Below are positions 30,790-44,713 of a stretch of 64,000 nt of DNA, piece after piece (position 1 is the first letter of the stretch; each line of letters starts with the position of its first letter). A program made the translations under genes and the position numbers. Source of the stretch: Mycolicibacterium cosmeticum. Its GTDB lineage: Bacteria; Actinomycetota; Actinomycetes; Mycobacteriales; Mycobacteriaceae. The stretch covers positions 620,001-684,000 of the forward strand of contig NZ_CCBB010000002.1 in NCBI RefSeq assembly GCF_000613185.1, read 5' to 3'. The notes under the pieces are model-generated. The model was not told the DNA's origin. It was given only the letters and a program-made list of their open reading frames with translations, and ran no database searches.

Positions 30790-30805
30790 GTTAACGATTA
30801 TTCAC
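30790..30805. promoter_or_regulatory. GTKAAY-N4-ATTMAC palindrome upstream of MFS
   Basis: GTTAAC-GATT-ATTCAC, flanked by TAC and GTA so that the palindrome extends to 22 bases. It lies about 375 bases upstream of the MFS start and matches the motif found at three other promoters of this locus (34265, 43888, 44021). The gap between 30568 and 31181 otherwise contains no recognised gene. Confidence 0.55.
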
Positions 30806-31181
30806 GTACTGGAAACGGCGGCGACTTCGTTCGGCGGTCAGATAGTAAGCGCCAGTAAGGCGCCGCAACCAGCAGAACAACTGGACTACAAGAACTTCTG
30901 GCACCTCACAGCGCGGCCAAGACCCGTGCGGCCGACAAACTGTTGACAACATCACATCGCAGTCCTAGGTTAACGGTGAATCACACTTGGAAGGGGTCAC
31001 CCTAAGCTCGCACCATCAGCCTCTGCGTCGCAGCACTGCTGCCATTGCGGGGCGCCTTTCAGGCTTGCCGGATAAGCCGGACGTCGACCACCTGTCGACA
31101 ACTCAGGAAACAACCGTGGCCGGGTCGGCCTCAGCAGCCCCCGACCCGGCTGATCTGCATACCCCAGAGAGGACCAACCCG

Positions 31182-32618
31182 ATGTCCCTGCGTGATTCCC
31201 GTGTCTCGCGTGTTGCACCGGCCGACCGACGCGCACGCGCGGGTGCCATTCTCGCCGCAGTGATTTCATGCGTCGCCGCGTTCAAGGGCCTGAACGAATC
31301 GGTCACGCCGCCTGCGCTTCCGATCTTGCAAGAACAATTCCACGTCCCCGGATCGACGATCTCGTGGGTCCTCACGGGCATGCTACTCACCGGCACCATC
31401 GCGACGCCCATCGCGAGCCGACTGGGCGAGGTATGGGACAAACGCCGCACCCTGCTGTGCGTACTTGCCATCGTGGCGACCGGAACTCTGATGTCGGCAC
31501 TATCGGTATCCATCGAGATGCTGATCATCGGGCAGCTGTTGCAAGGTGTAGGCCTCAGCACCGTCCCACTCGCCATCGGCATCATCAGGGACACCCAGAG
31601 CGAGGCCCGGACGAAATCGGCGAACGGCATGTTGGTCGGCGCGATCTACGGCAGCACCGCAGCCGGAACAATGGTGGCGGGGCCGATCGCCGACCACCTC
31701 TCGTACCGATGGTTGTTCTGGGTGCCCTTCATCGCACTGGCCGGCTGCATGGCGGCGGTGTGGCGCTTCGTGCCCCGCTCCGTGGGCACCGGTGGCGAGC
31801 GACCGAGTATCGACGTCGCCGGCAGCGTCCTGCTAGCCACCGGGCTGGCGTGCATTCTGCTGGCCCTCACGTTCGCGCCCGAATGGGAGTGGCGGTCGGC
31901 GCCACTGCTGCTGCTGGTCGGAGCCGGGCTGGTGGCCCTCATCGCCTTCGTCCGCGTCGAGCTCACCGCCGACGACCCGCTGATCGATCTGCGGCTCATG
32001 CGCAGTTTCACCGTCATCGCGTCGTCAGGCCTGATGTTCCTCGCCGGCTACTGCATCAACGCCACACTCATCAACGTTCCCATTCAGACACAGTTGCCGG
32101 CCTCCACGGGTTACGGCCTGGGTGGGTCAGCCACCCTCACCTCGGTCATCCTGGTGACGACCACCCTGATCGGGCTCACTGCGCCGCTCATCTCGGTGCT
32201 GGACAGATTGATCGGGTCCCGGTTGGCCTCGTCCATCGGACCGATCTCGATCCTGGGTGGCACGGTACTGATGCTGGCAGCCGGACACCGCGGCAGCATC
32301 GCCATCGTCTTCATGGCGACCTTGTTCGTCATCTTCGGTCTGACGGTGTCCATGACTCAATCGCTGAACCTCGTGGTCACCGGTGTCCCGGCGAACAAGG
32401 TGACCGAGTTCAACGGTCTGAACTTCGCGATCCAGGCGGTGGCCGGCACGATCGGCGCCCAAGTGTCCGGCGCCGCCCTCACCGTCGACGGAGGCGATGC
32501 CGCCGCGCCACCGCCCTGGAGCGGATTCGCCGTCTCCTGGGGACTGGCCGGTGTGATCGCCCTTGCCGCCCTGATCCTCGTGCTGGCCGTCCGAACCCCG
32601 AAAGTGCAGGCGGCGTAA
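31182..32618 (+). CDS. MFS transporter (DHA2/EmrB-like, 14 segments)
   Basis: A 478-residue major facilitator protein with about fourteen hydrophobic segments, as in the DHA2 subfamily. Motif A-like RLGEVWDKRRTLL follows segment 2, and the antiporter-type LLQGVGLSTVPLAIG is in segment 4. ATG 31182 has AGAGAGGA upstream; an in-frame extension to 30987 is rejected as it has no conserved features. Most relatives are drug exporters, but it lies at the edge of a catabolic locus and shares its operator motif, so substrate uptake or efflux of an intermediate is equally possible. Confidence 0.9.
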   Translation: MSLRDSRVSRVAPADRRARAGAILAAVISCVAAFKGLNESVTPPALPILQEQFHVPGSTISWVLTGMLLTGTIATPIASRLGEVWDKRRTLLCVLAIVATGTLMSALSVSIEMLIIGQLLQGVGLSTVPLAIGIIRDTQSEARTKSANGMLVGAIYGSTAAGTMVAGPIADHLSYRWLFWVPFIALAGCMAAVWRFVPRSVGTGGERPSIDVAGSVLLATGLACILLALTFAPEWEWRSAPLLLLVGAGLVALIAFVRVELTADDPLIDLRLMRSFTVIASSGLMFLAGYCINATLINVPIQTQLPASTGYGLGGSATLTSVILVTTTLIGLTAPLISVLDRLIGSRLASSIGPISILGGTVLMLAAGHRGSIAIVFMATLFVIFGLTVSMTQSLNLVVTGVPANKVTEFNGLNFAIQAVAGTIGAQVSGAALTVDGGDAAAPPPWSGFAVSWGLAGVIALAALILVLAVRTPKVQAA

Positions 32619-32636
32619 TCATGTCTTCCCGCACCA

Positions 32637-33398
32637 TCAAGTGATGGTCAGCCCCCCGTCGACGGCGAGTGTCTGCCCGGTGACGTAAGCACCGGCGGGC
32701 GATGCCAACCAGACTGCGGTCGCCGCGAGCTCGGCCGGGTCGCCGGTGCGCCCGAGGATCACCCGGGTCAGCTGAGAGTCGAGGTAGCCAGGCTTATAGG
32801 CGTCGGTCATCTCCGATTCGAAGAAGCCGGGTGCCAGCGAGTTGACCCGGATTCCCTTGCGGGATCCCCACTGCTGGGCGAGATCTCGGGTCAAACCGAT
32901 CACCGCCGCTTTCGATGCGGAATAGGCTGCCTGCGGCAGTCCGGCTGTGGTGATGCCGAGGACACTGGCGATGTTGATCACCGATGAACCGGGCTGCATG
33001 ACCCGACCGCAGGCTTGTGCCATCCAGTAGGACCCGTGCAAGTTCACCTCGACCACCTGACGGAACTCGTCGGGAGTCTCGCGGGTTGCCGGCACCGCGG
33101 TGCCCACACCGGCGTTGTTGACCAACACATCGACCTTGCCGAACTCGGCGACGGTCGCGTCGACCAGATTCTGGCAGGAAGCCGGGTCGGCCACATCGGT
33201 CCCCACGGGCAGTGCCCGGCGACCGGCTGCCGTTACCAGCTCTGCTGTGCGCGCCAACTTCTCGGTGCGGCGTGCACCGAGTGCGACATCTGCCCCGGCT
33301 TCCGCGAACGCCTGCGCGAAGGCCACTCCGAGCCCCGAGGAGGCACCGGTGACGATGACAACCTTGCCGTCGAGCCGAAACAGATCGAGAACACTCAC
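32637..33398 (-). CDS. Short-chain dehydrogenase/reductase (3-oxoacyl reductase-like)
   Basis: A 253-residue SDR: VIVTGASSGLGVAFAQAF (cofactor), NNAG and the catalytic YSASK in QAAYSASKAAVIGLTRDLA with Ser in INIASVLG. The C-terminus YVTGQTLAVDGGLTIT is typical of FabG/3-hydroxyacyl dehydrogenase-type SDRs. The GTG at 33398 overlaps the tetR stop (GTGA), so it is translated with that regulator. It may carry out an alcohol/ketone step in the adjoining pathway. Confidence 0.9.
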   Translation of the reverse strand: MSVLDLFRLDGKVVIVTGASSGLGVAFAQAFAEAGADVALGARRTEKLARTAELVTAAGRRALPVGTDVADPASCQNLVDATVAEFGKVDVLVNNAGVGTAVPATRETPDEFRQVVEVNLHGSYWMAQACGRVMQPGSSVINIASVLGITTAGLPQAAYSASKAAVIGLTRDLAQQWGSRKGIRVNSLAPGFFESEMTDAYKPGYLDSQLTRVILGRTGDPAELAATAVWLASPAGAYVTGQTLAVDGGLTIT

Positions 33399-34090
33399 GA
33401 TATCTCCTGCGGTTCGTGGAGGCCGGCTTTCACTTGTCGGGCAGTCAAGCCACCGGCGCCGGTGGGTCGGTGGCAGGTCAGGGCTTGCATCGCCGCGGTC
33501 GACATCGTCGCGACGATCTCTTCTCGGTCCAGCCCCTTGTTGAGCGTGGCCACCGAGTTGAGCATGGCGAACACCGCCTGCGTGACCAGGCGGACCTGGG
33601 GTTCGGATAGATCTGGACGGAGTTGTTGCACAACCAAAACCCATTCCTGCGCATATTGATTCATCTCGCGGCGGATCCGTCGCCGATCGGATTCGAGAAG
33701 CGCGTGCTCGTTCTTCAGGAAAATCAGAGTCCGCGGTGGATCGGCGATCACGGATCTCACATGGAAGTCGATCATCGTTGCCAGTGCGGCACGCGGATCG
33801 GGTTCCGCGTCGACGGTCGACCGGGCGAACCGATGCAGCTCCTGCAGCCCTTCCTCGACCACGGCCGTCAGCAGCGCCTGCTTGTTCTGAAAGTGGCGGT
33901 ACAGCCCCGGTCCCGATATCCCCGCTTCGGTGGCCACCATGCCGACCGTCACCGCGTCGTATGGATGGTGCAGGAAAAGTTCCGCGGCGGCATCGACGAG
34001 CAGCTTCCGCCGGGAACCACGCGTGTGCGGTTCGCCCTTGCCTGCGGTCGCCGTCTCTGCGGTGATCGATGCTGTCGCCGAGGACGCCAT
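33395..34090 (-). CDS. TetR-family regulator, paralogue 1
   Basis: A 231-residue TetR regulator with RGSRRKLLVDAAAELFLHHP, DAVTVGMVATEAGISGPGLY and RHFQNKQALLTAVV as the DNA-binding domain. It is plainly paralogous to the TetR at 44120-44713 over the whole length (HHPYDAVTVGMV versus EHPYDSVTVGMV, RHFQNKQALL shared, RTLIFLKNE versus TPLIFLKNE). It has a long N-terminal extension. It sits upstream of the coupled SDR and divergent to the LLM operon whose promoter carries the shared palindrome. Confidence 0.92.
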   Translation of the reverse strand: MASSATASITAETATAGKGEPHTRGSRRKLLVDAAAELFLHHPYDAVTVGMVATEAGISGPGLYRHFQNKQALLTAVVEEGLQELHRFARSTVDAEPDPRAALATMIDFHVRSVIADPPRTLIFLKNEHALLESDRRRIRREMNQYAQEWVLVVQQLRPDLSEPQVRLVTQAVFAMLNSVATLNKGLDREEIVATMSTAAMQALTCHRPTGAGGLTARQVKAGLHEPQEIS

Positions 34091-34121
34091 AGGCGCCCAC
34101 CATACACCGTCTTCGGCCTCA

Positions 34122-34238: not shown

Positions 34239-34284
34239 TTGACAGTGACCACCACCCGTTCTATGTTAATGCTCATTCACATAG
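34239..34284 (+). promoter_or_regulatory. Promoter with overlapping palindromic operator
   Basis: TTGACA (34239-34244) and TATGTT (34262-34267) are spaced by 17 bases, a good sigma-A type promoter. A near-perfect 24-base palindrome (34261-34284), with core GTTAAT-GCTC-ATTCAC at 34265-34280, covers the -10 box. A repressor bound here would block RNA polymerase, so the LLM operon is probably induced by pathway substrate. Confidence 0.75.
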
Positions 34285-34291
34285 CCGCGAG

Positions 34292-35506
34292 ATGGAGAAG
34301 ACCTTGAGATTCATATTCATGAGCGAAGGCGAGACGGCCCCGGGAGCCTCGTACGAGCACCGCTATCGCGAACTCATCGACGAGGTACTCCTGGCCGAAG
34401 AGGTGGGATTCGACGCATTCGGCACCTCCGAACAGCATCTGGCCATCGGTACCGCCACCACGTCCGCGCCCGAGGTTCTGTACCCGTACCTGATGGCGCT
34501 GACCAGCCGGATTCGGTTCGTCCACCTGGTCACCCTGCTTCCCACCCGGATCAACCACGCCATCCGTGTCGCCGAGCGATTGGCCACCGAGGACGTGCTG
34601 TCTCACGGTCGCGTCGAACTCGGCGTCGGGCGGGGGAACACCACGCTCGCACTGCGCGCATTCGAGGTGTCCCCCTCGGAGAACAAGTCACAGCAACTCG
34701 AAGGGATCGAAGTCATCCGTCGCGCGCTGCACGACGACGTCTTCTCCTTCGTCGGCGAGCACTACAAGATCCCGCCCCGCAGCCTGGTGCCCCGAAGCGT
34801 CCAAACGCCCTACCCCCCGATCCACATGGCGACCGGCAGCCCGGAATCCGTCCGCGCAGCAGCCGAACTCGGCATCGGCGCGATCGTGGGCGGGTTCTAT
34901 CTCGGCTTCGAGTTCGTCGAGAACATGATCCGCCTTTACGACGACGCACTGGCCTCGGCGACGCACACCTATCCGCTGCAGGCCGAGCGACTGGTGGCGA
35001 TCGGCGGCGGCATGCACTGTGCGGAGACCCGCGAGGAGGCCCGTACGTGGGCGCGGGGCCTCAAGGAGACGGTCGGCCTGTCCACCGACGCCTACGAGCG
35101 ACTGTCGAAGCTGTCCAGCGACTACCAGTACATGGGCGCGGTGAAACACCTCGACTTCAACGACGAGCGTTACATGTTCGAAGACTCGTCCGGATTCATC
35201 GTCGGCGACCCCGACGATTGCATCGCCCAAGTCCAGCGGTTCGCCGATCTGGGAGCGGATTCCCTGGTCATGCGGATCGACGGACTGCCACACAAGGAGC
35301 TCATGAAGTCGATCGAACTCTTCGGGAAGTACGTCATCCCGAAGTTCAAGAATCCGCGTGGCGTCGCACGCACTCCGGAGGCCATCCTGGCCGACATCCG
35401 CGCCGCCCGTCCCGCTCACTATGCCGAACGAGAAGCCTTCGAGGAGAACATGAAACAGAAGCAACCAGCAGTCAGTGGCGTCGGCGCGGGCGCGGGTGAG
35501 GCGTGA
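34292..35506 (+). CDS. LLM-class flavin monooxygenase
   Basis: A 404-residue luciferase-like monooxygenase, first gene of the operon. FIFMSEGETAPGASYEHRY, FDAFGTSEQHLAIGT, RIRFVHLVTLLPTRINHAI and GRVELGVGRGNTTLAL are typical. A flavin reductase gene lies in the same operon (39927), so it may be the oxygenase part of a two-component FMNH2-dependent system, able to do Baeyer-Villiger, ring-hydroxylating or ring-cleaving oxidation. Start choice is uncertain: ATG 34292 lacks a clear ribosome binding site, while TTG 34304 has GGAG 6 bases upstream and would begin exactly at the conserved RFIFMSEGE. Its TGA overlaps the next gene (TGATG). Confidence 0.9.
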   Translation: MEKTLRFIFMSEGETAPGASYEHRYRELIDEVLLAEEVGFDAFGTSEQHLAIGTATTSAPEVLYPYLMALTSRIRFVHLVTLLPTRINHAIRVAERLATEDVLSHGRVELGVGRGNTTLALRAFEVSPSENKSQQLEGIEVIRRALHDDVFSFVGEHYKIPPRSLVPRSVQTPYPPIHMATGSPESVRAAAELGIGAIVGGFYLGFEFVENMIRLYDDALASATHTYPLQAERLVAIGGGMHCAETREEARTWARGLKETVGLSTDAYERLSKLSSDYQYMGAVKHLDFNDERYMFEDSSGFIVGDPDDCIAQVQRFADLGADSLVMRIDGLPHKELMKSIELFGKYVIPKFKNPRGVARTPEAILADIRAARPAHYAEREAFEENMKQKQPAVSGVGAGAGEA

Positions 35507-36363
35507 TGAGCACCCGCAACGGCAACGACATCTTCGCGCGCTATCCGGAAGAGTTCCTCATCGAACGCAAGCCCAACGGCGTGCTCTTGGTGACCCTCAA
35601 CCGGCCGGAGCACCTGAACGCACTGACCATGCCGATGTTCGAGATGATGGGTGATCTGCTGATCGACATCGACCGCGACCCGCAGACCCGGGTGGCCGTC
35701 TTCACCGGTGCCGGCCGCGGCTTCTGCACGGGCATGGATGTCGCGCAACCCGATCCATCGCTGGAAGACGCGATCGCGCTCATGGAAACCGAACGCAAGC
35801 GCATCATGACAACGCTGAACATGGACAAGCCGATCATCTCGGCGATCAACGGACCGGCCGTCGGTTGGGGTCTGTCGCTGGGATTGCTCGCCGACATCAG
35901 CATCGCGGCCGAAGACGCCGTTCTCATGGACGGACACACCCGCATCGGGGTCGTCGCGGGAGACCACTCGTCCCTCATCTGGCCGCTGCTGGTCGGCATG
36001 GCGAAGGCCAAGTACTACCAGCTGACCTCGGCACGCTTGACGGGGATCGAGGCCGAACGCATCGGACTGGTCAGCCTGGTCGAGCCCCGAGACAAGGTGC
36101 TCGAACGGGCCCTGGCGATCGCCGACGATCTCGCCCTGGGTTCGCAGCGCGCCATCCAGTGGACCAAACGGTCGCTGAACACCGGCTGGCTGACCAACGC
36201 GCTTCCGCAGCAGGAGCTCTCGGCCGCGTTGGAAACCCTCAACTTCGCCGGCGCCGACTATCTCGAGGCGCGGCAAGCCTTCCGAGAGAAGCGCCCGACG
36301 CGCTTTCCCTCGGCACACGGCGATCATGCCGCACCGTCGCCGGAGACAGTCAGCAACGCATGA
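35506..36363 (+). CDS. Enoyl-CoA hydratase/isomerase family, copy 1
   Basis: A 285-residue crotonase-fold protein. The oxyanion-hole strands are AVFTGAGRGFCTGMDVAQP and ISAINGPAVGWGLSLGLLAD. The usual acids of a true hydratase (Glu in the GxGxE stretch) are not evident: the equivalent position reads GHTRIGVVAGDHSS. It might therefore be an isomerase, hydrolase or C-C lyase. It starts within the LLM stop (TGATG) and ends overlapping the second crotonase (ATGA). Confidence 0.88.
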   Translation: MSTRNGNDIFARYPEEFLIERKPNGVLLVTLNRPEHLNALTMPMFEMMGDLLIDIDRDPQTRVAVFTGAGRGFCTGMDVAQPDPSLEDAIALMETERKRIMTTLNMDKPIISAINGPAVGWGLSLGLLADISIAAEDAVLMDGHTRIGVVAGDHSSLIWPLLVGMAKAKYYQLTSARLTGIEAERIGLVSLVEPRDKVLERALAIADDLALGSQRAIQWTKRSLNTGWLTNALPQQELSAALETLNFAGADYLEARQAFREKRPTRFPSAHGDHAAPSPETVSNA

Positions 36364-37166
36364 CCGAGATCGCCACCGGTGCGCTCCCCGGACTGACCTG
36401 GACCGACCATTCCGGCGTCCTGGTCGTCACCATGGACCGACCGCCCGCGAACGCGTTGAATCACAGCCTCGTGGCCAGCCTGCGCACGCTCTTCACCGAG
36501 TTGGCCGCCCAAGCCGTACCTGCACCGGTGGTCCTCACCGGTGCAGGTACCCGCTTCTTCACCGCCGGCGGTGACATCAAGGAACTGGAGGGCACGGGGC
36601 CGGCGGAGATCGAGGGAAGGATGCGCAACTTCCACGGCGTGCTCGTGGCGCTGGATCGATTCCCGCGCCCACTCATCGCGGCCATCAACGGGCATTGCGT
36701 CGGGGGCGGCATGGAACTCGCGCTTTTCGCCGACACCGTCTTGGCGACCCCGAACGCCAGGTTCGGCTTCCCCGAGATCAACCACGGTCTGCTGCCCGCG
36801 GACAAGGGCATCCAGCGAGCCGAGCGCCTCATCGGAGCCCGCGCCGTCCGGTCGATGGTGTTGTCCGGGGACCTGTTCTCGGCGGAGGAGGCGGTCAGGA
36901 TCGGGTTGGTGGACCGCCTCGAGGAGCCCGACACCTTGCTCACTTCGGCCATCACTGTGGCGCGCGCCGCCGGCGCGAAGGCTCCGGTTCTGTACAGCGC
37001 GCTCAAACGCAGCGTCAACGACCCGGACGACGCCCGGGATGAACGGTCGCTGGCCGACACGATCGCTGCCGCGAAGAACTACTTCGAGGATCCGGTCGCG
37101 GCAGGACTTCGCACCGGATGGAATCGAGACAAGGTGTCCTCGAGCCGCCAATCGACAGACCGCTAA
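36360..37166 (+). CDS. Enoyl-CoA hydratase/isomerase family, copy 2
   Basis: A 268-residue crotonase-fold protein, only distantly related to its neighbour. Oxyanion-hole segments: VVLTGAGTRFFTAGGDIKEL and AAINGHCVGGGMELALFADT. It has a better hydratase-like active-site stretch (ARFGFPEINHGLLPADKGIQ, with the Glu of FPE) than copy 1. Start overlaps copy 1 (ATGA). It probably hydrates or cleaves a CoA ester made by the ligases of the locus. Confidence 0.9.
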   Translation: MTEIATGALPGLTWTDHSGVLVVTMDRPPANALNHSLVASLRTLFTELAAQAVPAPVVLTGAGTRFFTAGGDIKELEGTGPAEIEGRMRNFHGVLVALDRFPRPLIAAINGHCVGGGMELALFADTVLATPNARFGFPEINHGLLPADKGIQRAERLIGARAVRSMVLSGDLFSAEEAVRIGLVDRLEEPDTLLTSAITVARAAGAKAPVLYSALKRSVNDPDDARDERSLADTIAAAKNYFEDPVAAGLRTGWNRDKVSSSRQSTDR

Positions 37167-37199
37167 CACCAACGAGCTCGCCGAGGACGAAGGCAGACA

Positions 37200-39110
37200 A
37201 TGGTCGCAGAGAGAACTTCCCGGACAGCCACGCCGAACGCCAACAGCGCCGGCACAATCCCTGTCCTGCAGAGTGTCCACAACTTCGAGGCCCTGCCCCG
37301 AACCTTCGCCCAACTGCTGGTCGATCGGGCGGCGCACGAACCCGATACCGTGGCCTTCGCCTCCTGGCAGGACGGCATCGCGCGTCCCACGACGTGGGGC
37401 GAGTACCTCACCGAGGTCCAGCAGATCGCCGTCGGTCTGTACGAACTCGGTGTCCGGGCCGGTGACCGAGTCGCGATCATCTCCACCACGCGCCGCGAAT
37501 GGGTCATCGCCGCGCTGGCGATCCACAGCCTCGGCGCGGTGCTCGTGGGCGTCTATCCGACCAGCTCGGTCCCCGAACTGGCACGGGTGCTCCAGATCAG
37601 CGAAGCCACGGCGATCTTCGCCGAGACCGAGTCGGATCTGCGCAAAGTTGCCGAGGTGGCCGGGGACGCACCGCACCTGCGCATCGCGATCGGAATCGAC
37701 TGTCCCCCGGCCGGACTTCCGGCCGACGTGCAATCAACGGACTGGCGAGCGTTGCAGAAGATGGGGTGGGCACGTACGGCCGCCGAGCCGGGCCTGTTCG
37801 GCGTCCTCGTCGCGGACGGTCACATCGATCAGCCCGCGGTCCTGTTCTGGACGTCGGGGTCCACCGGAGACCCCAAGGGCGTGGTCCACACCCACCGTTC
37901 GCTGCAGTACTCGGTGTTGGCGTTCGCGATGGCGTATCCGGACATCGGCCGGGTGCAGCACGACGCCGTTGCGTTCCTGGGGCTGTCACATGTGGCGCCG
38001 GCGTTGGTGAACGTCTTCGTGCCGATCATGACCAGGCTCGTCGTCACCTACTGCACGATGGAAGAGCGCCTGGCCGTGCTCACCGCCGTTCGGCCCACCG
38101 CGATCGTCTGGCCGCCGCGCATGTACGAGAAACTTGCCGGCGAATTGCTGGACCAGCTCCGGCGGTCCGGGCCGCTGTTCCGGGCGCGTTACGCTGCGGC
38201 CATGACGGTGGCCCGCGCCGTCTGCGCCCGTCGCTGGGACGGAAAGACGCTGCCCGGATTCCTCGATGCGCTGTACCGCTTCTGTCTACGAACGGTTTTC
38301 ACACCGCTGCGGGCGACCTACGGCATGGATCGCATTGCCGTCAGCTGGACCTCGTCGGGTGCCATGACACCCGAGCTCGCCGCGTTATGGCAGATGTGGG
38401 GTGTCGACCTCCGCGAGATGTACGGGACGACCGAAACCTGCGGTCCTGTCCTCGTGCAATGGGAGAAGACCTTCTATCCGCCGGGCACGATCGGCAAATC
38501 CCTGCCCGATGCCCGCTGGTCCGTCCGGGTCGGCGACGACGGTGAGTTCCAGGTCAAGGGCCCCTGCCTGTTCACCGGCTACTGGCAAGACCCCGCGGCC
38601 ACCGAGGCGACCCTCGCCGGCGGTTGGTACGGAACGGGGGATCTGGTCGAGATCCGTCCCGACGGCGAGGTGGCGATCATCGGCCGCATCAAGGATGTCC
38701 TCAAGACCAGCGGCGGAAAATCCGTCAGTCCGCAACCCATCGAGGTGCGGCTCAAGGCCAGTCCGTTGATCGACGAGGCGATCGTGGTGGGTGAAGGCCG
38801 CAAATACCTGACGGTCCTGCTCGGCGTCAGCGACGACGCCAGGTCGATGCCGGCGCCGGAGCTGCGCGCCGCCCTGGACGCATGGATTCAACAGGTGAAC
38901 GCCGAACTGGCCCGGCCGTTGCAGCTCAAGGATTTCCGCGTGCTGCCACGCGCCCTGTCGGCCGAGCTCGGCGAGCTCACCCTGAAATCGACCATCAGGC
39001 GCGGTGTCGTTCTCACCTCGTTCGCCGACCTCATCGACGAGATGTACCCGGCACGGGAACAGGTTCAGATCTCGAGCCAAGCTCGGCTGCCGGGGCGGAA
39101 CAATGGCTGA
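37200..39110 (+). CDS. Long-chain-type acyl-CoA synthetase (AMP-forming)
   Basis: A 636-residue ANL-superfamily ligase of the FAA1/FadD15-like long type. ATP-binding loop FWTSGSTGDPKGVVHTHRS, adenylate motif REMYGTTETCGPVL, hinge GWYGTGDLVEI and IGRIKDVLKTSGGKSVSPQP, and the C-terminal motif LTLKSTIRRG that supplies the catalytic lysine region. It activates a carboxylic acid as its acyl-CoA. It is a paralogue of the ligase at 41869-43758 along its whole length. Thirty-three bases separate it from the crotonase upstream. Confidence 0.92.
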   Translation: MVAERTSRTATPNANSAGTIPVLQSVHNFEALPRTFAQLLVDRAAHEPDTVAFASWQDGIARPTTWGEYLTEVQQIAVGLYELGVRAGDRVAIISTTRREWVIAALAIHSLGAVLVGVYPTSSVPELARVLQISEATAIFAETESDLRKVAEVAGDAPHLRIAIGIDCPPAGLPADVQSTDWRALQKMGWARTAAEPGLFGVLVADGHIDQPAVLFWTSGSTGDPKGVVHTHRSLQYSVLAFAMAYPDIGRVQHDAVAFLGLSHVAPALVNVFVPIMTRLVVTYCTMEERLAVLTAVRPTAIVWPPRMYEKLAGELLDQLRRSGPLFRARYAAAMTVARAVCARRWDGKTLPGFLDALYRFCLRTVFTPLRATYGMDRIAVSWTSSGAMTPELAALWQMWGVDLREMYGTTETCGPVLVQWEKTFYPPGTIGKSLPDARWSVRVGDDGEFQVKGPCLFTGYWQDPAATEATLAGGWYGTGDLVEIRPDGEVAIIGRIKDVLKTSGGKSVSPQPIEVRLKASPLIDEAIVVGEGRKYLTVLLGVSDDARSMPAPELRAALDAWIQQVNAELARPLQLKDFRVLPRALSAELGELTLKSTIRRGVVLTSFADLIDEMYPAREQVQISSQARLPGRNNG

Positions 39111-39930
39111 GTCGGCGTCGGTGGACCACACCGGCCGCGAAGTGCGGATCGAGCGGATGACCAGCAACGAGGTGGCGGCCGCGATCGAAAAGGGAGCGTG
39201 CACCGCGATTCTGCCCCTCGCCGCCGTGGAACAGCACGGCCCACATCTGCCGCTGTCGATGGACGCCGATCATGCCGACGAGCTCGCGATCCGGGTGGCC
39301 CGCGAACTCGGGGATGCGCTGGTACTGCCGACGGTCCGGGTCGGGTACTCGCCACATCACCTCGGCTTCCCGGGAACCCTGTCGCTGCGCGCCTCGACAC
39401 TGGAAGCCATCTGTACGGACTACGGTGCGAGCGTGGCGGATTCGGGGTTTCGCACCCTGGTGCTCTTCTCCGGGCATATCGGGAACTATCCGGTGATGCG
39501 CGAGTTCGAAGCGCGGCTGGCGGCCACACTGGCACCGCTGTCGGTGCTCGTCTACACCGGCAGCCAGGCGATCCTCGACGCCTGGCGTGCGGCGGCAGAG
39601 CCGTCCGGACACGGCGCCAGTGTCGGCGGCCATGCCGATATCGCCGAAACGTCGGTCATGCTCGCGCTGCATCCCGAACGGGTGCGCGCCGACCGGTTGG
39701 TTCCCGGATACCAGGTCAGTATCGACGACGCATTTCTGGCTCGCGTGCTCAGCGATGGCCTCAAGGCGTTCTCCCCCAACGGCATTCTCGGCAACCCCAT
39801 CGGAGCCAACCCTACGATCGGCCATGCCTGCCTGGACGCGGTGACCGGGCTGATCACCGACTACATCCGCAGCCGGACAGGATCGTCTGCTGCACACGAC
39901 CGTGCGTCCCGTGAGGAAGAGGAAACATGA
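39103..39930 (+). CDS. Creatininase-family amidohydrolase
   Basis: A 275-residue creatininase-like protein. Metal-binding motifs: AAVEQHGPHLPLSMDADHAD (Glu, His and Asp), LFSGHIGNYPVMREFEA (His) and GGHADIAETSVMLAL (Glu). The fold hydrolyses cyclic amides such as creatinine and also acts in lactone opening and cofactor maturation. The ATG at 39103 overlaps the end of the ligase; the longer frame to 39004 lies within that gene. In this operon a ring-opening hydrolysis of a lactam, lactone or cyclic amide is the natural hypothesis. Confidence 0.88.
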   Translation: MAESASVDHTGREVRIERMTSNEVAAAIEKGACTAILPLAAVEQHGPHLPLSMDADHADELAIRVARELGDALVLPTVRVGYSPHHLGFPGTLSLRASTLEAICTDYGASVADSGFRTLVLFSGHIGNYPVMREFEARLAATLAPLSVLVYTGSQAILDAWRAAAEPSGHGASVGGHADIAETSVMLALHPERVRADRLVPGYQVSIDDAFLARVLSDGLKAFSPNGILGNPIGANPTIGHACLDAVTGLITDYIRSRTGSSAAHDRASREEEET

Positions 39931-40439
39931 ACGCTTTCACCGAAATAAGATCCGGTGACGCCGTCCACGACATGTCCCGGCTGCGTAGGCTCTACGGCCG
40001 CTACCCGACCGGCGTGGCGGCGGTCTGCGCGTTGCGCGACGGTCAACCGGTGGGAATCGTGGCCACCTCGTTCACCCCGGTGTCGATGGAGCCCGCCTTG
40101 GTGTCGATCTGTGTGCAGCACACCTCGACCACGTGGCCCCAGTTGTCGCGACAAGATCACGTCGGAATCTCGGTGCTCGCCGAAGGACACGCACAACTGT
40201 CTCGTCAGCTGGCGGCCAAGAACGCCGATCGCTTTGCCGGACTGACGTGGTTCACCAGCGATTCCTCCGCGGTGTTCCTCGCCGACGCGGCCGCCTGGCT
40301 CGACTGTCGGATCAGCACATCGATCACCGCAGGCGATCACGATGTCGTGCTGATGGAGGTCGTCAGTGCCGCCGACGACGAAAACGTATCCCCACTGATC
40401 TTCCACGACAGCCGATTCCGGACGATGTTCACCGAATGA
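39927..40439 (+). CDS. Flavin reductase-like protein
   Basis: A 170-residue flavin reductase of the HpaC/ActVB-like split-barrel family: RRLYGRYPTGVAAVCAL, VGIVATSFTPVSMEPALVSI and WLDCRISTSITAGDHDVVLM. It supplies reduced FMN or FAD to a partner monooxygenase; the only candidate in the operon is the LLM protein at 34292. It overlaps the genes on both sides by ATGA, so stoichiometric expression is likely. Confidence 0.9.
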   Translation: MNAFTEIRSGDAVHDMSRLRRLYGRYPTGVAAVCALRDGQPVGIVATSFTPVSMEPALVSICVQHTSTTWPQLSRQDHVGISVLAEGHAQLSRQLAAKNADRFAGLTWFTSDSSAVFLADAAAWLDCRISTSITAGDHDVVLMEVVSAADDENVSPLIFHDSRFRTMFTE

Positions 40440-41857
40440 CTTGCCCGAGTAAGGTCCGATTGCCCGCCGAGTACCTGCCCCGCAGGAACAGGCCGGCCTG
40501 GCGGATCGCGGAAGTCGCCGCCGATCCCGCCGCGGTGTCGACCGAGGTCAGGGCCATGGTGATCAACCGCATCATCGACAATGCCGCGGTCGCCGCCGCC
40601 GCGGCGCGCCGGCGCCCCGCCACGCTCGCGCGGGCCCAGGCCCGGGCACACCGGAGGACGCCAGGTGCGGCGATCTTCGGTGTCGACGGCGCCTACTCCG
40701 CCGAATGGGCCGCCTTCGCCAACGGTGTCGCGGTCCACGATCTCGATCTGCACGACGTGTTTCCGGCCGCTCCTGACGCGCATCCCGGCGCTGCCATTCC
40801 GGCGCTGACGGCCGTCGCCCAGCAGGCGGGGCTACGCGGCGCCGATCTGGTCAACGGCATCGCGACCGCCTACGAGGTGCACCTCGCGCTGGCTCAGCGG
40901 ACCCATCCGCGCCAGCGGACGGTCGGTCATCCCGAACCGCTGAGCACCGCGGTGACGGCGGGCCTGGGCACCATGCTCCGGTTGTCCCCCGCGACGATCT
41001 ACACCGCCCTCACCCGCACGGTGCAGTTGACCGCCGCCGGCCGCAGCGGCTACTCGGCCGCCTACGCCGGCAAGGTGGCCATCGAAGCCGTCGACCGCGC
41101 CGTGCACGGCGAACGTCACCCCGAACCACCCGGGGGCCACGACGACGGACCCGACTGGCTGCTGACCGAGCATGACCGCCGGACACGACTCCCGGAACCC
41201 GGCGACCCCAAGACGGCGATTCTCGACAGCTGTCCCAGAAGGCATTCCGCGGCCTACGGCGGTCAAGCCTGGATCGATCTGGCTTTGAAGATGCGGGACC
41301 GGATCGGCCGGGTCGAGGCGATCGAGTCCGTTGTCCTGCACACCCGGCAGGACACCGACGTGACGGCCGGACCGGCGGATCCATGCCGGTCTGGTTCCCC
41401 GGCGCCCCGCGACACGCTCGCTGGATCGGTGGACTACCTGTTCACCGTCGCGCTGCAGGACGGTGCCGTGCATCACGACCAGTCCTACACCTCGGAGCGA
41501 GCGCAGCGGGCCGACACGGTGTACCTTCGCCGGCAGATCTCGTTCGTCGAGGATGCGGCCGAACGGATGCCGGGTGCACGCGCGACGATCACGATGAAGT
41601 CCGGCGCGGTGATCATCGATGAGCTCGCCGTGCCCGACGCGCACCCGCAGGGCGCGCGCCCCTTCCGGCGCAACGATTACGTCGCGAAGTTCACCGAACT
41701 TGCCGAGGGGATCATCGACAGGAGGGAGCAGCAGCGCTTCCTCGATGTCGTCACCTGTCTGGGCGACCTGAAACGGGGATCGCTGGGCATGCTGAATCCC
41801 TTGATCAGTCAGCACATCCTGGATGCGGCACCCAACACACATGGCATCTTCGCCTGA
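40436..41857 (+). CDS. MmgE/PrpD-family protein
   Basis: A 473-residue MmgE/PrpD family member (2-methylcitrate dehydratase-like fold; some members are cis-aconitate decarboxylase or iminodisuccinate epimerase). Recognisable parts are RAMVINRIIDNAAVAAAAAR, EWAAFANGVAVHDLDLHDVF and CPRRHSAAYGGQAW. The catalytic role is probably lyase, dehydratase or isomerase on a tricarboxylate-like or CoA-free acid. The start overlaps the flavin reductase (ATGA). It is the last gene of the operon and converges on the ligase at 41869 with 11 bases between stops. Confidence 0.88.
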   Translation: MTCPSKVRLPAEYLPRRNRPAWRIAEVAADPAAVSTEVRAMVINRIIDNAAVAAAAARRRPATLARAQARAHRRTPGAAIFGVDGAYSAEWAAFANGVAVHDLDLHDVFPAAPDAHPGAAIPALTAVAQQAGLRGADLVNGIATAYEVHLALAQRTHPRQRTVGHPEPLSTAVTAGLGTMLRLSPATIYTALTRTVQLTAAGRSGYSAAYAGKVAIEAVDRAVHGERHPEPPGGHDDGPDWLLTEHDRRTRLPEPGDPKTAILDSCPRRHSAAYGGQAWIDLALKMRDRIGRVEAIESVVLHTRQDTDVTAGPADPCRSGSPAPRDTLAGSVDYLFTVALQDGAVHHDQSYTSERAQRADTVYLRRQISFVEDAAERMPGARATITMKSGAVIIDELAVPDAHPQGARPFRRNDYVAKFTELAEGIIDRREQQRFLDVVTCLGDLKRGSLGMLNPLISQHILDAAPNTHGIFA

Positions 41858-41868
41858 CTGCGCGTGAC

Positions 41869-43758
41869 CTACCGCTTGCGGTTCGGTCCCGCATAGCGGG
41901 CCTCGCGGGCGATCGCGTCGAGATCTCCGGCGTCATACATCTCGTCGACGAGATCGCTGAACGCCGCCAGGATGGCTGCCCGCCGGATGGTGCCCTTGGC
42001 CGTGAGCTCGCCGGCTGCGGCCGAAAGCTCGCGCGGAAGGACCCGGTACTTCTTCAGTTGACAGGGTCGCGCGAGCTCGGCGTTGACCTCCTCGAGCAAC
42101 GCGCTCAGCGCGTGGTCCCGGTCCCGTGCGGTCAGCCTCTTGGCCTCGTGGCTCACGCACAACAACACCGAGAGATACTTGCGTCCGTCGCCCACGACGA
42201 TGGCGTCGTCGATGAGCGGGCTGGCCTTCAGGCGCACCTCGATAGGTTGCGGGCTCACCATCTTGCCGCCGCTGGTCTTCAGGACATCCTTCAACCGGCC
42301 GATGATCCGCACTTCGCCGTCGGGTGCGAGCTCCACCAGATCCCCGGTGCGGTACCAACCGTCCGACCTGGCCGCCGCGGACGCCTCGGGATTCTGCCAA
42401 TAGCCGACGAATAAGGAGGGACTGCGAAGCAGCAGTTCCCCCTCGGTGGAAACCCGCAGTTGCCAGCGCGGATCCGGCAGACACTTGCCGATGGTGCCAG
42501 GCGCCGGAAAGGACCGATCCCATTGCGCCAGCACCGATCCGCACGTTTCGGTGGTGCCGAACAGCTCTCGTAGGTCAAGGCCCCACATGTGCCACAGCGC
42601 CGCCACATCGGGGGTCATGCTTCCCGAGGCCGTCCAGGTCACCTCGATGCGGTCCATGCCCACCTTCGCCAGCAGCGGGGCGAATACCGTTGTGCGGGCG
42701 ACCGCGTCGGCAGCCCGCAGATACCAGGGCAGTTCGCGTTGCTGCCAGCGCCGTGCGCTGACCGGCCGGGCCACCGACATCGCCAGGCGGTAGCAGAATC
42801 GGAACGCCCGGCCGGTACCGGACAGTGCCTGCAGCGCCTCGGCGGCCAGCTTCTCGTGCATGCGTGGAGGCCACAGCACCGCGGTCGGCCGCACGCCGAT
42901 CAGCGCTGGGAGCCGTTCCTCGATGCTGCAGTGGGTGACGACCAGTCGGGTCATGATCGGCGTGTACACCGCGATGAGAGCCGGGGCAACGTGTGACAAC
43001 CCGAGGAAGCCGACGAGATCGTGACGGGTGCGCCCGATCTCGGGATACGACATGGCGAAGCCGAGCACGGAGTACTGGATGGTCCGGTGGGTGTGCGTGA
43101 CGCCCTTGGGCGCGCCCGTTGAGCCGGAGGTGTAGAACAGTCCCGCCGGTTGGTCGACGTCGCCGGCCTCGACCAGCTTCTCGAAGAGCATGGGGTCCGC
43201 GGCGGCCAGCCGGCGGCCATCGGTGCGCAATTGCTGCCAGGTGTGGACGTCCAGACCGCCCGCTGCGAACGTCGGACTTGCCTCCAGCCCGACGGCGATC
43301 CGGAGTTGCTCGAGATCGGTGCCCAGCGCCGCCACGTTGGCCGCGTCGTCGCCGGTTTCGACGAAAATCGCGGTGGCTCCGCTGTTTTCCAGGACGTGCC
43401 GGACCTCTGGGCGCGAACTGGTCTGGTGGACACCGACCGGGATGCCTCCGACGCTCAGGATGGCCAGCGCCGCGATCACCCATTCGGGGCGGGGGCCGGC
43501 CAGGATGGCCACGCGGTCACCCGCGGTGATGCCCAACGCGTGCAGACCGAGCGCAATCGCGCGGACTTCGTCGAGATAGCTGCGCCAGGTGGTCGGGCGC
43601 ATCGCACCACCGGCCCACCTCTGGAAGGCGACGGTGTCCGGCTCGACTCGTTCCCGGTCGCAGAGCATTTGCGGAAAGGTCCGATCGACGGCCTCGAAGT
43701 CCGTCAGCGCCGAAAGCACCGGACTACCACCACTTCTACCGGTACCCGACGGTGTCAT
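41869..43758 (-). CDS. Long-chain-type acyl-CoA synthetase, paralogue
   Basis: A 629-residue AMP-forming ligase closely paralogous to 37200-39110: FYTSGSTGAPKGVTHTHRT, RELFGTTETCGSVLAQW, GWYRTGDLVEL and GRLKDVLKTSGGKMVSPQP match segment for segment. It is transcribed alone and leftward from a promoter at 43901-43930 that carries the same operator as the LLM operon. Having two such ligases under one regulator suggests two acids in one pathway, or one ligase for the substrate and one for the ring-cleavage product. Confidence 0.92.
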   Translation of the reverse strand: MTPSGTGRSGGSPVLSALTDFEAVDRTFPQMLCDRERVEPDTVAFQRWAGGAMRPTTWRSYLDEVRAIALGLHALGITAGDRVAILAGPRPEWVIAALAILSVGGIPVGVHQTSSRPEVRHVLENSGATAIFVETGDDAANVAALGTDLEQLRIAVGLEASPTFAAGGLDVHTWQQLRTDGRRLAAADPMLFEKLVEAGDVDQPAGLFYTSGSTGAPKGVTHTHRTIQYSVLGFAMSYPEIGRTRHDLVGFLGLSHVAPALIAVYTPIMTRLVVTHCSIEERLPALIGVRPTAVLWPPRMHEKLAAEALQALSGTGRAFRFCYRLAMSVARPVSARRWQQRELPWYLRAADAVARTTVFAPLLAKVGMDRIEVTWTASGSMTPDVAALWHMWGLDLRELFGTTETCGSVLAQWDRSFPAPGTIGKCLPDPRWQLRVSTEGELLLRSPSLFVGYWQNPEASAAARSDGWYRTGDLVELAPDGEVRIIGRLKDVLKTSGGKMVSPQPIEVRLKASPLIDDAIVVGDGRKYLSVLLCVSHEAKRLTARDRDHALSALLEEVNAELARPCQLKKYRVLPRELSAAAGELTAKGTIRRAAILAAFSDLVDEMYDAGDLDAIAREARYAGPNRKR

Positions 43759-43887
43759 AGCGGAATTCTCACCCTTCAGATCGGCTTCTCAGCGAGGTTT
43801 TGACGGACAGTTTCGGTCAGCGCGGGTCGAGGCGCTCCGTCGATGGTCGGCAGTCGATTGACCGAGAACCGGCAGCACCGCCACGAA

Positions 43888-43930
43888 GTGAATATCGATT
43901 AACATAATCCTGTCGCGTGGTCGGTGTCAA
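43888..43930 (-). promoter_or_regulatory. Promoter with palindromic operator for the ligase
   Basis: On the minus strand TTGACA (43930-43925) and TATGTT (43906-43901) are spaced by 18 bases. The palindrome GTGAAT-ATCG-ATTAAC (43888-43903, plus strand) overlaps the -10 box, exactly as at 34261-34284. Confidence 0.7.
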
Positions 43931-44020
43931 CGGATACCGCTTCTGCCCGGCACCCGCCGGCCCCGACGTGCGCGGCCTTCGTCGACGCGACCGCGCTCAT
44001 GCCCTGATCCGCGCATCGAT

Positions 44021-44036
44021 GTTAATATCCGGTAAC
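44021..44036 (+). promoter_or_regulatory. Operator-like site upstream of second tetR
   Basis: GTTAAT-ATCC-GGTAAC, a weaker member of the same palindrome family, over a TAATAT (44023-44028) that could be a -10 box. Suggests autoregulation of the TetR gene at 44120. Confidence 0.5.
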
Positions 44037-44119
44037 TGAACACTTCGATGACGCCCGTTCGAGTGATGCAGATTGGCGCACCACCGAACGGCGCGGGCGA
44101 GCGGGATATCGTGACGAGC

Positions 44120-44713
44120 ATGACTGAAGACCGACCATCCGCCAGGGGTTCTCGGCGAGAGCTCCTGTTGAAGGTCGCGGCCGAGCTTTTCCTGGAGCAT
44201 CCCTATGATTCGGTCACCGTCGGAATGGTATGTGCGAAGGCGGGCATCTCGGCACCAGGTCTGTATCGTCACTTCCAGAACAAGCAGGCCCTGCTGATCG
44301 CCGTCGTGGAGAATCCCATCGGATCGCTGCACGAGTTCGCCCGCAAGGTTGCCGAGGAACAGGATGATCCGCACGCCGCGCTGACGGCCATGGTGGAGTT
44401 CCATATCCGCAGCGTCGTGGAAGGACCTCCGACCCCGCTGATCTTCCTCAAGAACGAGTACGCATTTCCCGAGGCGGATCGACGACGAATCCGTCGCGCC
44501 ATGAATCTTTATGCCGAAGAATGGATCTCGGTCGTGTCGGTGCTGCGCCCCGATTTGTCGGACCCGGCGGTGCGGCTACTGACCCAGACCGTCTTCTCGA
44601 TGCTCAACGCAGCCGCGACGCTGCACAAGGGGCTCGACCACGAGACGATCATCGCCACCATGTCCACCGCCGCCTATCACGCGCTGACGGCATCCACCCG
44701 ACCGCACATCTGA
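44120..44713 (+). CDS. TetR-family regulator, paralogue 2
   Basis: A 197-residue TetR regulator: RGSRRELLLKVAAELFLEHP, DSVTVGMVCAKAGISAPGLY and RHFQNKQALLIAVVE. It is a paralogue of the TetR at 33395-34090. The ATG at 44120 is chosen because MTEDRPSARGSRR begins near the domain; an in-frame ATG at 44048 would add 24 residues, more like the longer paralogue. The palindrome at 44021-44036 precedes it. It is the second candidate for binding the shared motif. Confidence 0.9.
   Translation: MTEDRPSARGSRRELLLKVAAELFLEHPYDSVTVGMVCAKAGISAPGLYRHFQNKQALLIAVVENPIGSLHEFARKVAEEQDDPHAALTAMVEFHIRSVVEGPPTPLIFLKNEYAFPEADRRRIRRAMNLYAEEWISVVSVLRPDLSDPAVRLLTQTVFSMLNAAATLHKGLDHETIIATMSTAAYHALTASTRPHI

What the first reader, a model, noticed from the sequence alone, without database searches (positions are those of the whole stretch)
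30790..44713. Probable undescribed catabolic regulon built round a two-component LLM monooxygenase
One operon of seven genes joined by overlaps or short gaps pairs an LLM monooxygenase with a flavin reductase, two crotonases, an acyl-CoA ligase, a creatininase-like ring hydrolase and an MmgE/PrpD protein. An MFS transporter, SDR, second ligase and two paralogous TetRs border it. Family knowledge supports oxygenation, hydrolysis, CoA activation and hydration; the order and substrate are inference. I know of no named pathway with this set.
Basis: partly seen in the sequence, partly recalled or inferred. Interest (0 to 1): 0.72.

Follow-up and report, generated by a model that had tools for sequence, protein, structure and literature searches.

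The report
Bacterial pyridine-type ring-breaking gene cluster
A switchable set of genes in a soil mycobacterium, kept together in very distant bacteria, probably breaks open a nitrogen-containing ring acid (perhaps the fungal toxin fusaric acid) and turns the pieces into food.

Summary
In detail: seven genes (34292-41857) overlap or lie 33 bp apart. One palindromic operator lies before the MFS gene, the LLM operon and LIG2/TetR2; its 19-base core, written from these sites, has no other exact copy in the 6.46-Mb genome. A similar site lies just upstream of the LLM in 25 of 28 relatives.

LLM, two crotonases, ligase, creatininase-like hydrolase and flavin reductase occur together in 32 of 37 loci of two phyla. 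PrpD is not core. Twelve loci add an AceE-type E1 and 14 a further acyl-CoA synthetase, so the unit probably reaches 51.9 kb.

Among sequences fetched, the LLM is nearest to TpdA- and PyrA-type N-heteroaromatic ring openers (37%, 32%; RutA 19%, SsuD 22%). Molybdenum hydroxylase genes lie nearby in Bradyrhizobium and Azospirillum; one relative runs on to acyl-CoA carboxylase and methylmalonyl-CoA mutase.

Best reading: a CoA-dependent, FMNH2-driven ring-opening pathway for an N-heteroaromatic acid, yielding a 2-oxo acid, probably 2-oxobutyrate (class 0.6). 5-Alkylpicolinates such as fusaric acid fit best, unproven (0.35). A 2023 fusaric-acid paper could not be read and may overlap.

The parts
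30787..30808 (+). operator palindrome, between the SDR/ABM pair and the MFS gene
   Evidence: TACGTTAACGATTATTCACGTA, 0 mismatches
30966..30987 (+). weak second operator-like site before the MFS gene
   Evidence: 2 mismatches to the 19-base core, 4 to the 22-base pattern
31182..32618 (+). MFS transporter (478 aa, my reading), probable substrate transporter
   Evidence: ORF; relatives of 62-91% in 6 of 37 loci; no NCBIfam hit at 1e-30
32640..33398 (-). SDR oxidoreductase, overlaps TetR1 by 4 bases
   Evidence: 94% and 86% in L009 and L010 at the same place
33395..34090 (-). TetR1 regulator, divergent from the LLM operon
   Evidence: Pfam TetR_N; a TetR of this type in 29 of 37 loci
34262..34283 (+). 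operator palindrome, 8 or 20 bases before the LLM start
   Evidence: TATGTTAATGCTCATTCACATA, 0 mismatches; site with up to 4 mismatches in 25 of 28 relatives
34292..35506 (+). LLM: luciferase-like oxygenase, probably FMNH2-dependent ring opener
   Evidence: PF00296; 37% to the presumed TpdA of R. opacus 1CP, 32% to the PyrA-type protein of Arthrobacter 68b
35503..36363 (+). ECH1: crotonase with a His...Asp pair as in 6-oxocamphor hydrolase
   Evidence: DGHTRIGVVAGDH; 6-OCH H145/D154; pair kept in 13 of 15 compared
36360..37166 (+). ECH2: crotonase that keeps both hydratase glutamates
   Evidence: GGGME and PEINHG motifs
37200..39110 (+). LIG1: acyl-CoA/aryl-CoA ligase (AMP-binding, 636 aa)
   Evidence: PF00501 + PF23562; this type in 33 of 37 loci
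39103..39930 (+). CRE: creatininase-family amidohydrolase
   Evidence: PF02633, 214.7 bits; below the cut-offs of the three NCBIfam models hit; 34 of 37 loci
39927..40439 (+). FRED: flavin reductase, probable partner of the LLM
   Evidence: PF01613; best PDB matches are flavin reductases; a flavin reductase in 36 of 37 loci
40436..41857 (+). MmgE/PrpD-family protein, accessory; sits where most Mycobacteriales relatives have a RibBA-like gene
   Evidence: 490 bits to NF042438, cut-off 950
41869..43758 (-). LIG2: paralogue of LIG1 (59%)
43885..43906 (-). operator palindrome between LIG2 and TetR2
   Evidence: TATGTTAATCGATATTCACTTC: 19-base core exact, 2 mismatches to the 22-base pattern
44048..44713 (+). 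TetR2 regulator (67% to TetR1)
44719..45873 (-). acyl-CoA dehydrogenase, possible chain beta-oxidation
   Evidence: 85% and 84% in L011 and L017, next to a LIG3-type gene
45947..47047 (-). E2 acyltransferase of a 2-oxo acid dehydrogenase
   Evidence: 410 bits to SucB_Actino, cut-off 423
47049..49541 (-). AceE-type E1, distinct from a second AceE-like gene elsewhere in the genome
   Evidence: an AceE-type E1 in 12 of 37 loci
49640..50137 (+). Lrp/AsnC-type regulator (my reading)
   Evidence: conserved beside AceE in relatives; no NCBIfam hit at 1e-30
50185..51888 (+). LIG3: acyl-CoA synthetase, PRK08162-like; likely start inside the ORF
   Evidence: 658 bits, cut-off 677; 47% to the synthetase of the Burkholderia cepacia cluster

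Best explanation
A substrate-induced catabolic regulon for an N-heteroaromatic carboxylic acid. Two TetR repressors share one palindromic operator before the transporter, the LLM operon and the second ligase (sites shown; binding and repression inferred). FRED supplies FMNH2 to LLM, which with O2 opens the N-heteroaromatic ring as TpdA and PyrA do (inferred from kinship). LIG1 makes a CoA thioester of the ring acid or of an early product; ECH2 hydrates; ECH1 cleaves a carbon-carbon bond by hydrolysis (retro-Claisen, from its His/Asp pair); CRE removes the N-formyl or other amide group. The carbon ends as a 2-oxo acid, oxidised by the AceE-type E1/E2 complex under an Lrp regulator, and as a free acid activated by LIG3 (or LIG2) for beta-oxidation. 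All enzymatic steps are inferred. A concrete route that uses nearly every gene: 5-alkylpicolinate (fusaric acid, alkyl = butyl) to its CoA ester; C5-C6 opening to N-formyl-2-amino-5-oxoalk-2-enoyl-CoA; hydrolysis at C4-C5 to valerate and N-formyl-2-aminocrotonyl-CoA; deformylation and deamination to 2-oxobutyrate; then propionyl-CoA. Class of pathway 0.6; this substrate about 0.35.
For: Operator: the core pattern, written from the three sites, has no other exact copy in 6.46 Mb, backward control 0; with up to 4 mismatches the window has four sites, all in the three promoter regions; 25 of 28 relatives carry a site within 90 bp of the LLM start, reversed-pattern control 0 of 28. All five core partners in 32 of 37 loci, each in 33-36. 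LLM identities: TpdA-type 37%, pYKAM101 36%, PyrA-type 32%, RutA 19%, SsuD 22%; TpdA context annotated tpdB; 68b context amidohydrolase, flavin reductase, RidA, succinate-semialdehyde dehydrogenase. ECH1 His/Asp pair as in 1szo and 2j5g. Molybdenum hydroxylase genes 8-13 kb from the LLM in Bradyrhizobium and Azospirillum, and perhaps Pseudonocardia L025 (my reading of a cut gene about 10 kb away). E1-E2-E3, two acyl-CoA carboxylase subunits and methylmalonyl-CoA mutase follow in Bradyrhizobium 195. The E1s of the window and B. cepacia are only 29% alike and the Lrps 20% (E 0.07), so the function seems recruited twice. Flavin supply: intact DHBP-synthase motifs in RibBA-type neighbours of five clusters. 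FUSC-type efflux genes precede the Azospirillum cluster.
Against: No metabolite, transcript or enzyme datum. TpdA/PyrA kinship is only 32-37%, was sought mainly among plasmid records, and the deep tree is unresolved; the best solved structure is 7bip (88 bits), an LLM whose function I do not know. The AceE-like family is common in Mycobacteriaceae (70 of 251 genomes; LLM 3 of 251), so its linkage is weaker evidence, and no operator site with up to 5 mismatches lies near it in the window. EchA15 enzymes of unknown function share the His...Asp pair, so it does not prove retro-Claisen activity. The Bradyrhizobium nic-like genes could be a separate module. The operator is absent from the proteobacterial clusters without the TetR (none in L080, L088, L089, L093; one 4-mismatch site in L105). 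This genome shows no canonical prpD or prpB, so PrpD is probably not a methylcitrate enzyme here. Proteobacterial LLMs are 40-72% identical to the window's, and one Bradyrhizobium strain has two versions (L031 and L080), so substrates may differ.
Confidence: 0.6

Rival explanations
1. The LLM is a type II Baeyer-Villiger monooxygenase and the operon degrades an alicyclic ketone (terpenoid or steroid-like); ECH1 is a beta-diketone hydrolase and CRE opens a lactone.
For: ECH1 carries the 6-oxocamphor hydrolase His/Asp pair. LLM-type BVMOs exist in camphor and progesterone catabolism (PMC8706424, start of abstract in the listing; PMC12239570, passages).
Against: Nearest LLM kin fetched are N-heteroaromatic ring openers; amide-type hydrolases, RidA and a molybdenum hydroxylase in kin clusters. 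No diketocamphane monooxygenase is among the 25 PDB matches at E 0.001, but neither is RutA, so that point decides little; no such monooxygenase sequence was compared directly.
Confidence: 0.15
2. The AceE/E2/Lrp/LIG3/dehydrogenase block is an independent amino-acid catabolic unit that happens to lie beside the LLM regulon.
For: AceE-like genes occur in 70 of 251 family genomes, LLM in 3; no operator site near the block in the window.
Against: All 3 LLM genomes of that sample have it, about 9-15 kb away; an AceE-type E1 in 12 of 37 loci; non-orthologous E1-E2-E3-Lrp genes stand by the module in Burkholderia and Bradyrhizobium, and E2-E3-Lrp in the Paraburkholderia annotation; operator-like sites (4 mismatches) at the LIG3/RibBA promoters of L024 and L029.
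Confidence: 0.2
3. The LLM opens the free heteroaromatic acid; CoA ligases act only on the aliphatic products, so the pathway is an ordinary PyrA/TpdA-type one with beta-oxidation attached.
For: TpdA/PyrA pathways need no CoA step (recalled); several ligases are present.
Against: LIG1 is in the core operon in both phyla while a LIG3-type synthetase stands apart; two crotonases in the core.
Confidence: 0.25

Closest known systems
tpd pathway (tetramethylpyrazine), Rhodococcus jostii TMP1; kin cluster on R. opacus 1CP plasmid pR1CP1
   Same: LLM-type oxygenase first, flavin reductase, amidase, SDR nearby; LLM 37% identical; that this LLM is TpdA is presumed from the tpdB annotation
   Different: No ligase or crotonase in the region shown, a TpdB subunit and a LuxR regulator; amidase instead of creatininase
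pyr pathway (pyridine), Arthrobacter sp. 68b plasmid p2MP (gene names recalled; the record has two LLM places)
   Same: LLM 32% identical, flavin reductase, amidohydrolase, a flavin-supply gene (riboflavin kinase)
   Different: No CoA ligase or crotonase in the region shown
rut pathway (uracil), E. coli
   Same: LLM plus RutF flavin reductase plus amidohydrolase logic
   Different: LLM only 19%, FRED 23% to RutF; no CoA chemistry
6-oxocamphor hydrolase / beta-diketone hydrolase (1szo, 2j5g)
   Same: His145...Asp154 pair and GD...WP context in ECH1
   Different: ECH1 is closer to EchA15 of unknown function; other 6-OCH residues not tested
Fusaric acid catabolism, Burkholderia ambifaria T16 (Vinacour et al. 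2023, not read)
   Same: Possibly the same gene set: related clusters occur in Burkholderia; title known from a reference list
   Different: Cannot be judged; the paper is not held

Membership tests
Two-component (group C) flavin monooxygenase, LLM type | Bac_luciferase fold oxygenase | tested here: met
   PF00296 152 bits, gathering 27.9
Two-component (group C) flavin monooxygenase, LLM type | Separate flavin reductase encoded with it | tested here: met
   FRED in operon; a flavin reductase in 36 of 37 loci
Two-component (group C) flavin monooxygenase, LLM type | FMNH2 used, not F420H2 | not testable with these tools
   Only indirect support
TpdA/PyrA-type N-heteroaromatic ring-opening oxygenase | Sequence groups with TpdA and PyrA apart from SsuD and RutA | tested here: inconclusive
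   32-37% against 19-22%, but deep forks are open in the tree
TpdA/PyrA-type N-heteroaromatic ring-opening oxygenase | Opens an N-heteroaromatic ring | not testable with these tools
   Needs enzyme assay
TpdAB system | TpdB-type small subunit next to the LLM | tested here: not met
   ECH1 overlaps the LLM end; no gene between them
Creatininase | Scores above the creatininase equivalog | tested here: not met
   103.5 bits, cut-off 235; MftE 135.5, cut-off 172
Creatininase superfamily (PF02633) | Family profile | tested here: met
   214.7 bits, gathering 31.3
Canonical enoyl-CoA hydratase (ECH2) | Two catalytic glutamates (which residues: recalled) | tested here: met
   ECH2 keeps both
Canonical enoyl-CoA hydratase (ECH1) | Two catalytic glutamates (which residues: recalled) | tested here: not met
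   Ser (Thr in the Burkholderia form) and His instead
Crotonase-type beta-diketone hydrolase (ECH1) | His145/Asp154 pair | tested here: met
   13 of 15 ECH1; His122 and Glu244 (recalled) not tested
2-methylcitrate dehydratase PrpD | Equivalog score and a prpB partner | tested here: not met
   489 bits, cut-off 950; no canonical prpD found; only PrpB-like hit 39% over part, on another contig
AceE equivalog (homodimeric pyruvate dehydrogenase E1) | Equivalog score | tested here: not met
   214 bits, cut-off 860; another AceE-like gene at C1:1377566

The most novel reading that the evidence does not exclude
An aerobic pathway, shared by Actinomycetota and Proteobacteria, in which a pyridine-2-carboxylate is first made a CoA thioester and the LLM oxygenase opens the aromatic ring on that thioester, after which a crotonase of the beta-diketone hydrolase type splits the chain to 2-oxobutyrate and a fatty acid. 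Oxidative ring opening of a pyridine as its acyl-CoA would, as far as I know, be new chemistry for this enzyme class, and fusaric acid or other 5-alkylpicolinates would be the natural substrates.
Probability: 0.3. Interest if true: 0.75.

Novelty: new variant of a known kind. Interest (0 to 1): 0.6.

Why it matters
If right, it gives a cross-phylum marker set for degradation of N-heteroaromatic acids, a new use of CoA chemistry in opening pyridine-type rings, and a cheap test: induction and growth on a handful of compounds. If the substrate is fusaric acid, it points to soil and rhizosphere actinobacteria that may remove a major Fusarium phytotoxin.

Tried and rejected
Literature: searches (gene terms, 0 papers; 6-oxocamphor hydrolase, LLM, pyridine, tetramethylpyrazine and RutA terms) gave nothing on this set; (fusaric acid) gave only citations of the key paper. 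All 10 paper searches are used. Passages only were read in PMC6099782, PMC7356986, PMC12239570, PMC4647570, PMC13400623, PMC10293998, PMC10728271 and PMC12636432; no paper was read whole.

Rejected: PrpD as the methylcitrate enzyme. Mycofactocin MftE and true creatininase for CRE. An F420 LLM. RibBA-type neighbours as a universal part: 20 of 37 loci; in the 13 distinct Mycobacteriales genomes (G095 and G311 taken as one, from identical coordinates) a specific RibBA-like gene lies on the same contig as the module in 10, within about 11 kb, and the other 3 have PrpD in that slot. It has lost motif residues in the two Mycolicibacterium proteins aligned.

Dropped or mixed rows: L037-L039 (LLM 30-34%, no partner found) were left out of the 37 loci; of 24 plasmid records only 8 loci were counted there. 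The rest are duplicates, records not fetched, or distant kin (H16, H18-H22 were fetched for comparison only). In one search L010's ligase is its LIG2 orthologue, and four of the 14 LIG3 hits (L012, L016, L019, L020) are of a second synthetase type used as a query. The L019 E2 hit is weak (31%), though a 64% one lies in its extension. The site lists were cut at seven per locus; one search repeats the scan uncut for the window and 15 loci.


Full report
Observation. The seven-gene operon is real and open throughout. LLM 34292-35506, ECH1 35503-36363, ECH2 36360-37166, LIG1 37200-39110, CRE 39103-39930, FRED 39927-40439 and PrpD-like 40436-41857 are joined by five overlaps and one 33-bp gap. MFS, SDR, TetR1, LIG2 and TetR2 border it as stated. 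The window lies in a 6.46-Mb genome; its closest named relative found is Mycolicibacterium canariasense, with an LLM 95% identical.

Regulon. A search of the promoter regions gave a palindrome, TAYGTTAAYNNNNATTCACRTA, before the MFS gene (30787), before the LLM (34262) and between LIG2 and TetR2 (43885; this one departs at 2 of the 22 positions). The 19-base core was written from these three sites, so finding them is by construction. What is informative: no other exact copy of the core exists in the genome and the backward control has none; shuffled windows give 0.05 matches at up to 2 mismatches against 5 observed (four places, one read on both strands); with up to 4 mismatches to the 22 bases the whole window has four sites, all in these promoter regions, and the reversed pattern none; and 25 of 28 relatives carry a site of up to 4 mismatches within 90 bp upstream of the LLM match, out of 48 sites in 541,540 bases, while the reversed pattern gives 2 sites and none there. 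The three misses are L028 (a 5-mismatch site stands before its LLM), L032 (none) and L033 (a site stands before its first gene, the flavin reductase). The six relatives with the MFS gene have a site of 2-4 mismatches within about 0.5 kb of it. In L024 and L029 4-mismatch sites stand at the LIG3/RibBA promoters. Against: no site lies by the AceE block in the window, and the proteobacterial clusters without the TetR lack the operator, save one 4-mismatch site in L105.

Synteny. The search for related loci gave 31 loci, 28 of them with LLM identity of 58% or more, in Mycolicibacterium and Mycobacterium, Rhodococcoides, Nocardia, Saccharopolyspora, Pseudonocardia, Amycolatopsis, Prauserella, Streptomyces and Bradyrhizobium. 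With one further Bradyrhizobium locus and eight plasmid loci, 37 in all, the partner counts are: ECH1 35, ECH2 35, LIG1 type 33, CRE 34, FRED 36, all five 32; RibBA-type 20, LIG3 14, AceE 12, E2 13, Lrp 11, VOC 8, TetR 29, PrpD 2 besides the window (the queries include several versions of each protein, and presence means a match in the fetched stretch, up to about 40 kb). Some loci are cut by contig ends (L027 for one), so these are lower bounds. The LLM is rare: 3 of 251 family genomes at E 1e-120, against 70 of 251 for the AceE-like E1 at E 1e-200; all three LLM genomes have that E1, about 9, 13 and 15 kb away. The Burkholderia cepacia plasmid carries the set in another order: E1-E2-E3, Lrp, ribB, synthetase, ECH2, CRE, LLM, ECH1, ligase, flavin reductase.

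Independent recruitment. Between the window and B. cepacia, CRE is 47%, LIG3 47%, LLM 40%, ECH1 37% and LIG1 34% identical, but FRED is only 25%, the E1 29% and the Lrp 20% with E 0.07. The B. cepacia E1 passes the TIGR03186 cut-off (1836 bits), the window's does not (192). The flavin reductases of the Pseudonocardiaceae loci are 27-30% identical to the window's. The same roles seem to have been filled by different lineages of proteins, which argues that the LLM needs a flavin reductase and that a 2-oxo acid is a true product.

What the LLM is like. It is 37% identical to the LLM beside tpdB in R. opacus 1CP, 36% to that of plasmid pYKAM101 and 32% to that of the Arthrobacter 68b plasmid, against 19% to RutA and 22% to SsuD. 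These kin come from a plasmid collection; a characterised nearer relative outside it cannot be excluded. In the PDB the best match is 7bip (88 bits), of function unknown to me. A tree of 20 proteins joins the window's clade with the Burkholderia/Azospirillum/Bradyrhizobium clade (94/98, just short of the tool's star) and leaves the deeper order open. That TpdA opens tetramethylpyrazine and PyrA opens pyridine is recalled; the passages read say only that tpdABC holds the genes for initial tetramethylpyrazine degradation and that tpdA is a putative flavin monooxygenase gene (PMC6099782). The name PyrA for the 68b protein is mine, from memory, and fits its neighbours: amidohydrolase, flavin reductase, RidA, riboflavin kinase, succinate-semialdehyde dehydrogenase. 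Kin clusters also carry amidases and RidA, or deformylases.

Supporting chemistry. In ECH1 the two hydratase glutamates are replaced by Ser (Thr in the Burkholderia form) and His, and an Asp stands nine residues on; 6-oxocamphor hydrolase has H145 and D154 in the same spacing, and so has the 2j5g hydrolase. The pair is kept in 13 of 15 ECH1 compared; the two others (Arthrobacter sulfonylureivorans, Pseudonocardia EC080625-04) are ECH2-like. EchA15 of mycobacteria has the pair as well, so this is a hint. ECH2 keeps both glutamates. A creatininase-family enzyme that removes a formyl group (ArfB) is known to me from memory only.

Ring and products. In two Bradyrhizobium loci extended (L034+L074, L036+L075) a molybdenum hydroxylase and genes that I read as nicC-, nicF-, nicD- and nicX-like follow the module (the hydroxylase subunits and a flavoprotein monooxygenase were matched to families below their cut-offs, the others gave no NCBIfam hit at 1e-20). 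In Azospirillum a cytochrome c / 2Fe-2S / molybdopterin set and an FAD monooxygenase lie about 11-15 kb downstream of the LLM, and FUSC, DUF1656 and HlyD genes precede the cluster. In Bradyrhizobium sp. 195 the E1-E2-E3 genes are followed by two acyl-CoA carboxylase subunits (one annotated acetyl/propionyl/methylcrotonyl) and methylmalonyl-CoA mutase, and in Rhodococcoides carboxylase-like genes follow E2 (my reading). This points to 2-oxobutyrate and propionyl-CoA. RibBA-type neighbours keep the DHBP-synthase motifs (recalled) in B. cepacia, Azospirillum, Bradyrhizobium 195, Saccharopolyspora and Prauserella but not in two Mycolicibacterium.

Substrate. A 5-alkylpicolinate explains the ligase, the ring opener, an N-formyl hydrolase, a vinylogous retro-Claisen step, a 2-oxo acid of four carbons and a released fatty acid needing its own synthetase. 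Fusaric acid is the common natural one (recalled). This is inference. A 2026 paper, read in passages, cites Vinacour et al. 2023 for a methylcitrate-cycle kinase (VadK) in Burkholderia ambifaria (PMC13400623), which agrees with propionyl-CoA formation but says nothing on these genes. A Burkholderia fusaric-acid degrader is reported, in passages read, to hold nicABCDFXT and fus genes (PMC10293998).

PrpD. The window's PrpD-like protein is the only one found in its genome, scores 489 against a cut-off of 950, and shares little with E. coli PrpD (24% over 112 aa). It takes the slot after FRED that a RibBA-like gene holds in relatives. Its role is open. Five of the 12 genomes show no PrpD match at all, so the cycle is not general in these bacteria.

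Verdict. A real, conserved, operator-marked catabolic regulon, probably larger than described, most likely for an N-heteroaromatic acid. New variant of a known kind, subject to the unread fusaric-acid paper.

Noticed in passing
window 40436-41857: The PrpD-like gene stands where relatives have a RibBA-like gene: PrpD in 3, RibBA-like in 10 of 13 Mycobacteriales genomes (G294 not checked for PrpD).
   Followed up: partly
G000 and G308, whole genomes: No canonical prpD and no clear prpB was found, so the methylcitrate cycle may be missing here.
   Followed up: partly
L080 4869-15731 (Bradyrhizobium sp. RD5-C2): A second, diverged copy of the module (flavin reductase, branched-chain-type ABC genes, ECH2, CRE, LLM, ECH1, ligase) in a strain that also has the first.
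   Followed up: partly
L086 9690-21030 and L087 12007-19634: Variant clusters on plasmids of Arthrobacter sulfonylureivorans and an ant-associated Pseudonocardia: amidase, RidA and aldehyde dehydrogenase in place of creatininase and ECH1.
   Followed up: no
L096 9007-14707 (plasmid pYKAM101) and L099 7157-17044 (Aminobacter MSH1): Related LLM clusters with Lrp and RibBA, or with deformylases, possibly further N-heterocycle pathways.
   Followed up: no
window 26818-30567: GMC oxidoreductase, a short LLM that I read as F420-type, SDR and an ABM-like gene next to the regulon; GMC, short LLM and ABM-like gene are conserved in L009.
   Followed up: no
L017 16162-17280 and L016 16108-17223: RibBA-like proteins that have lost the DHBP-synthase acidic loop and a histidine of the GHTEA motif yet stay beside the operon.
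   Followed up: partly
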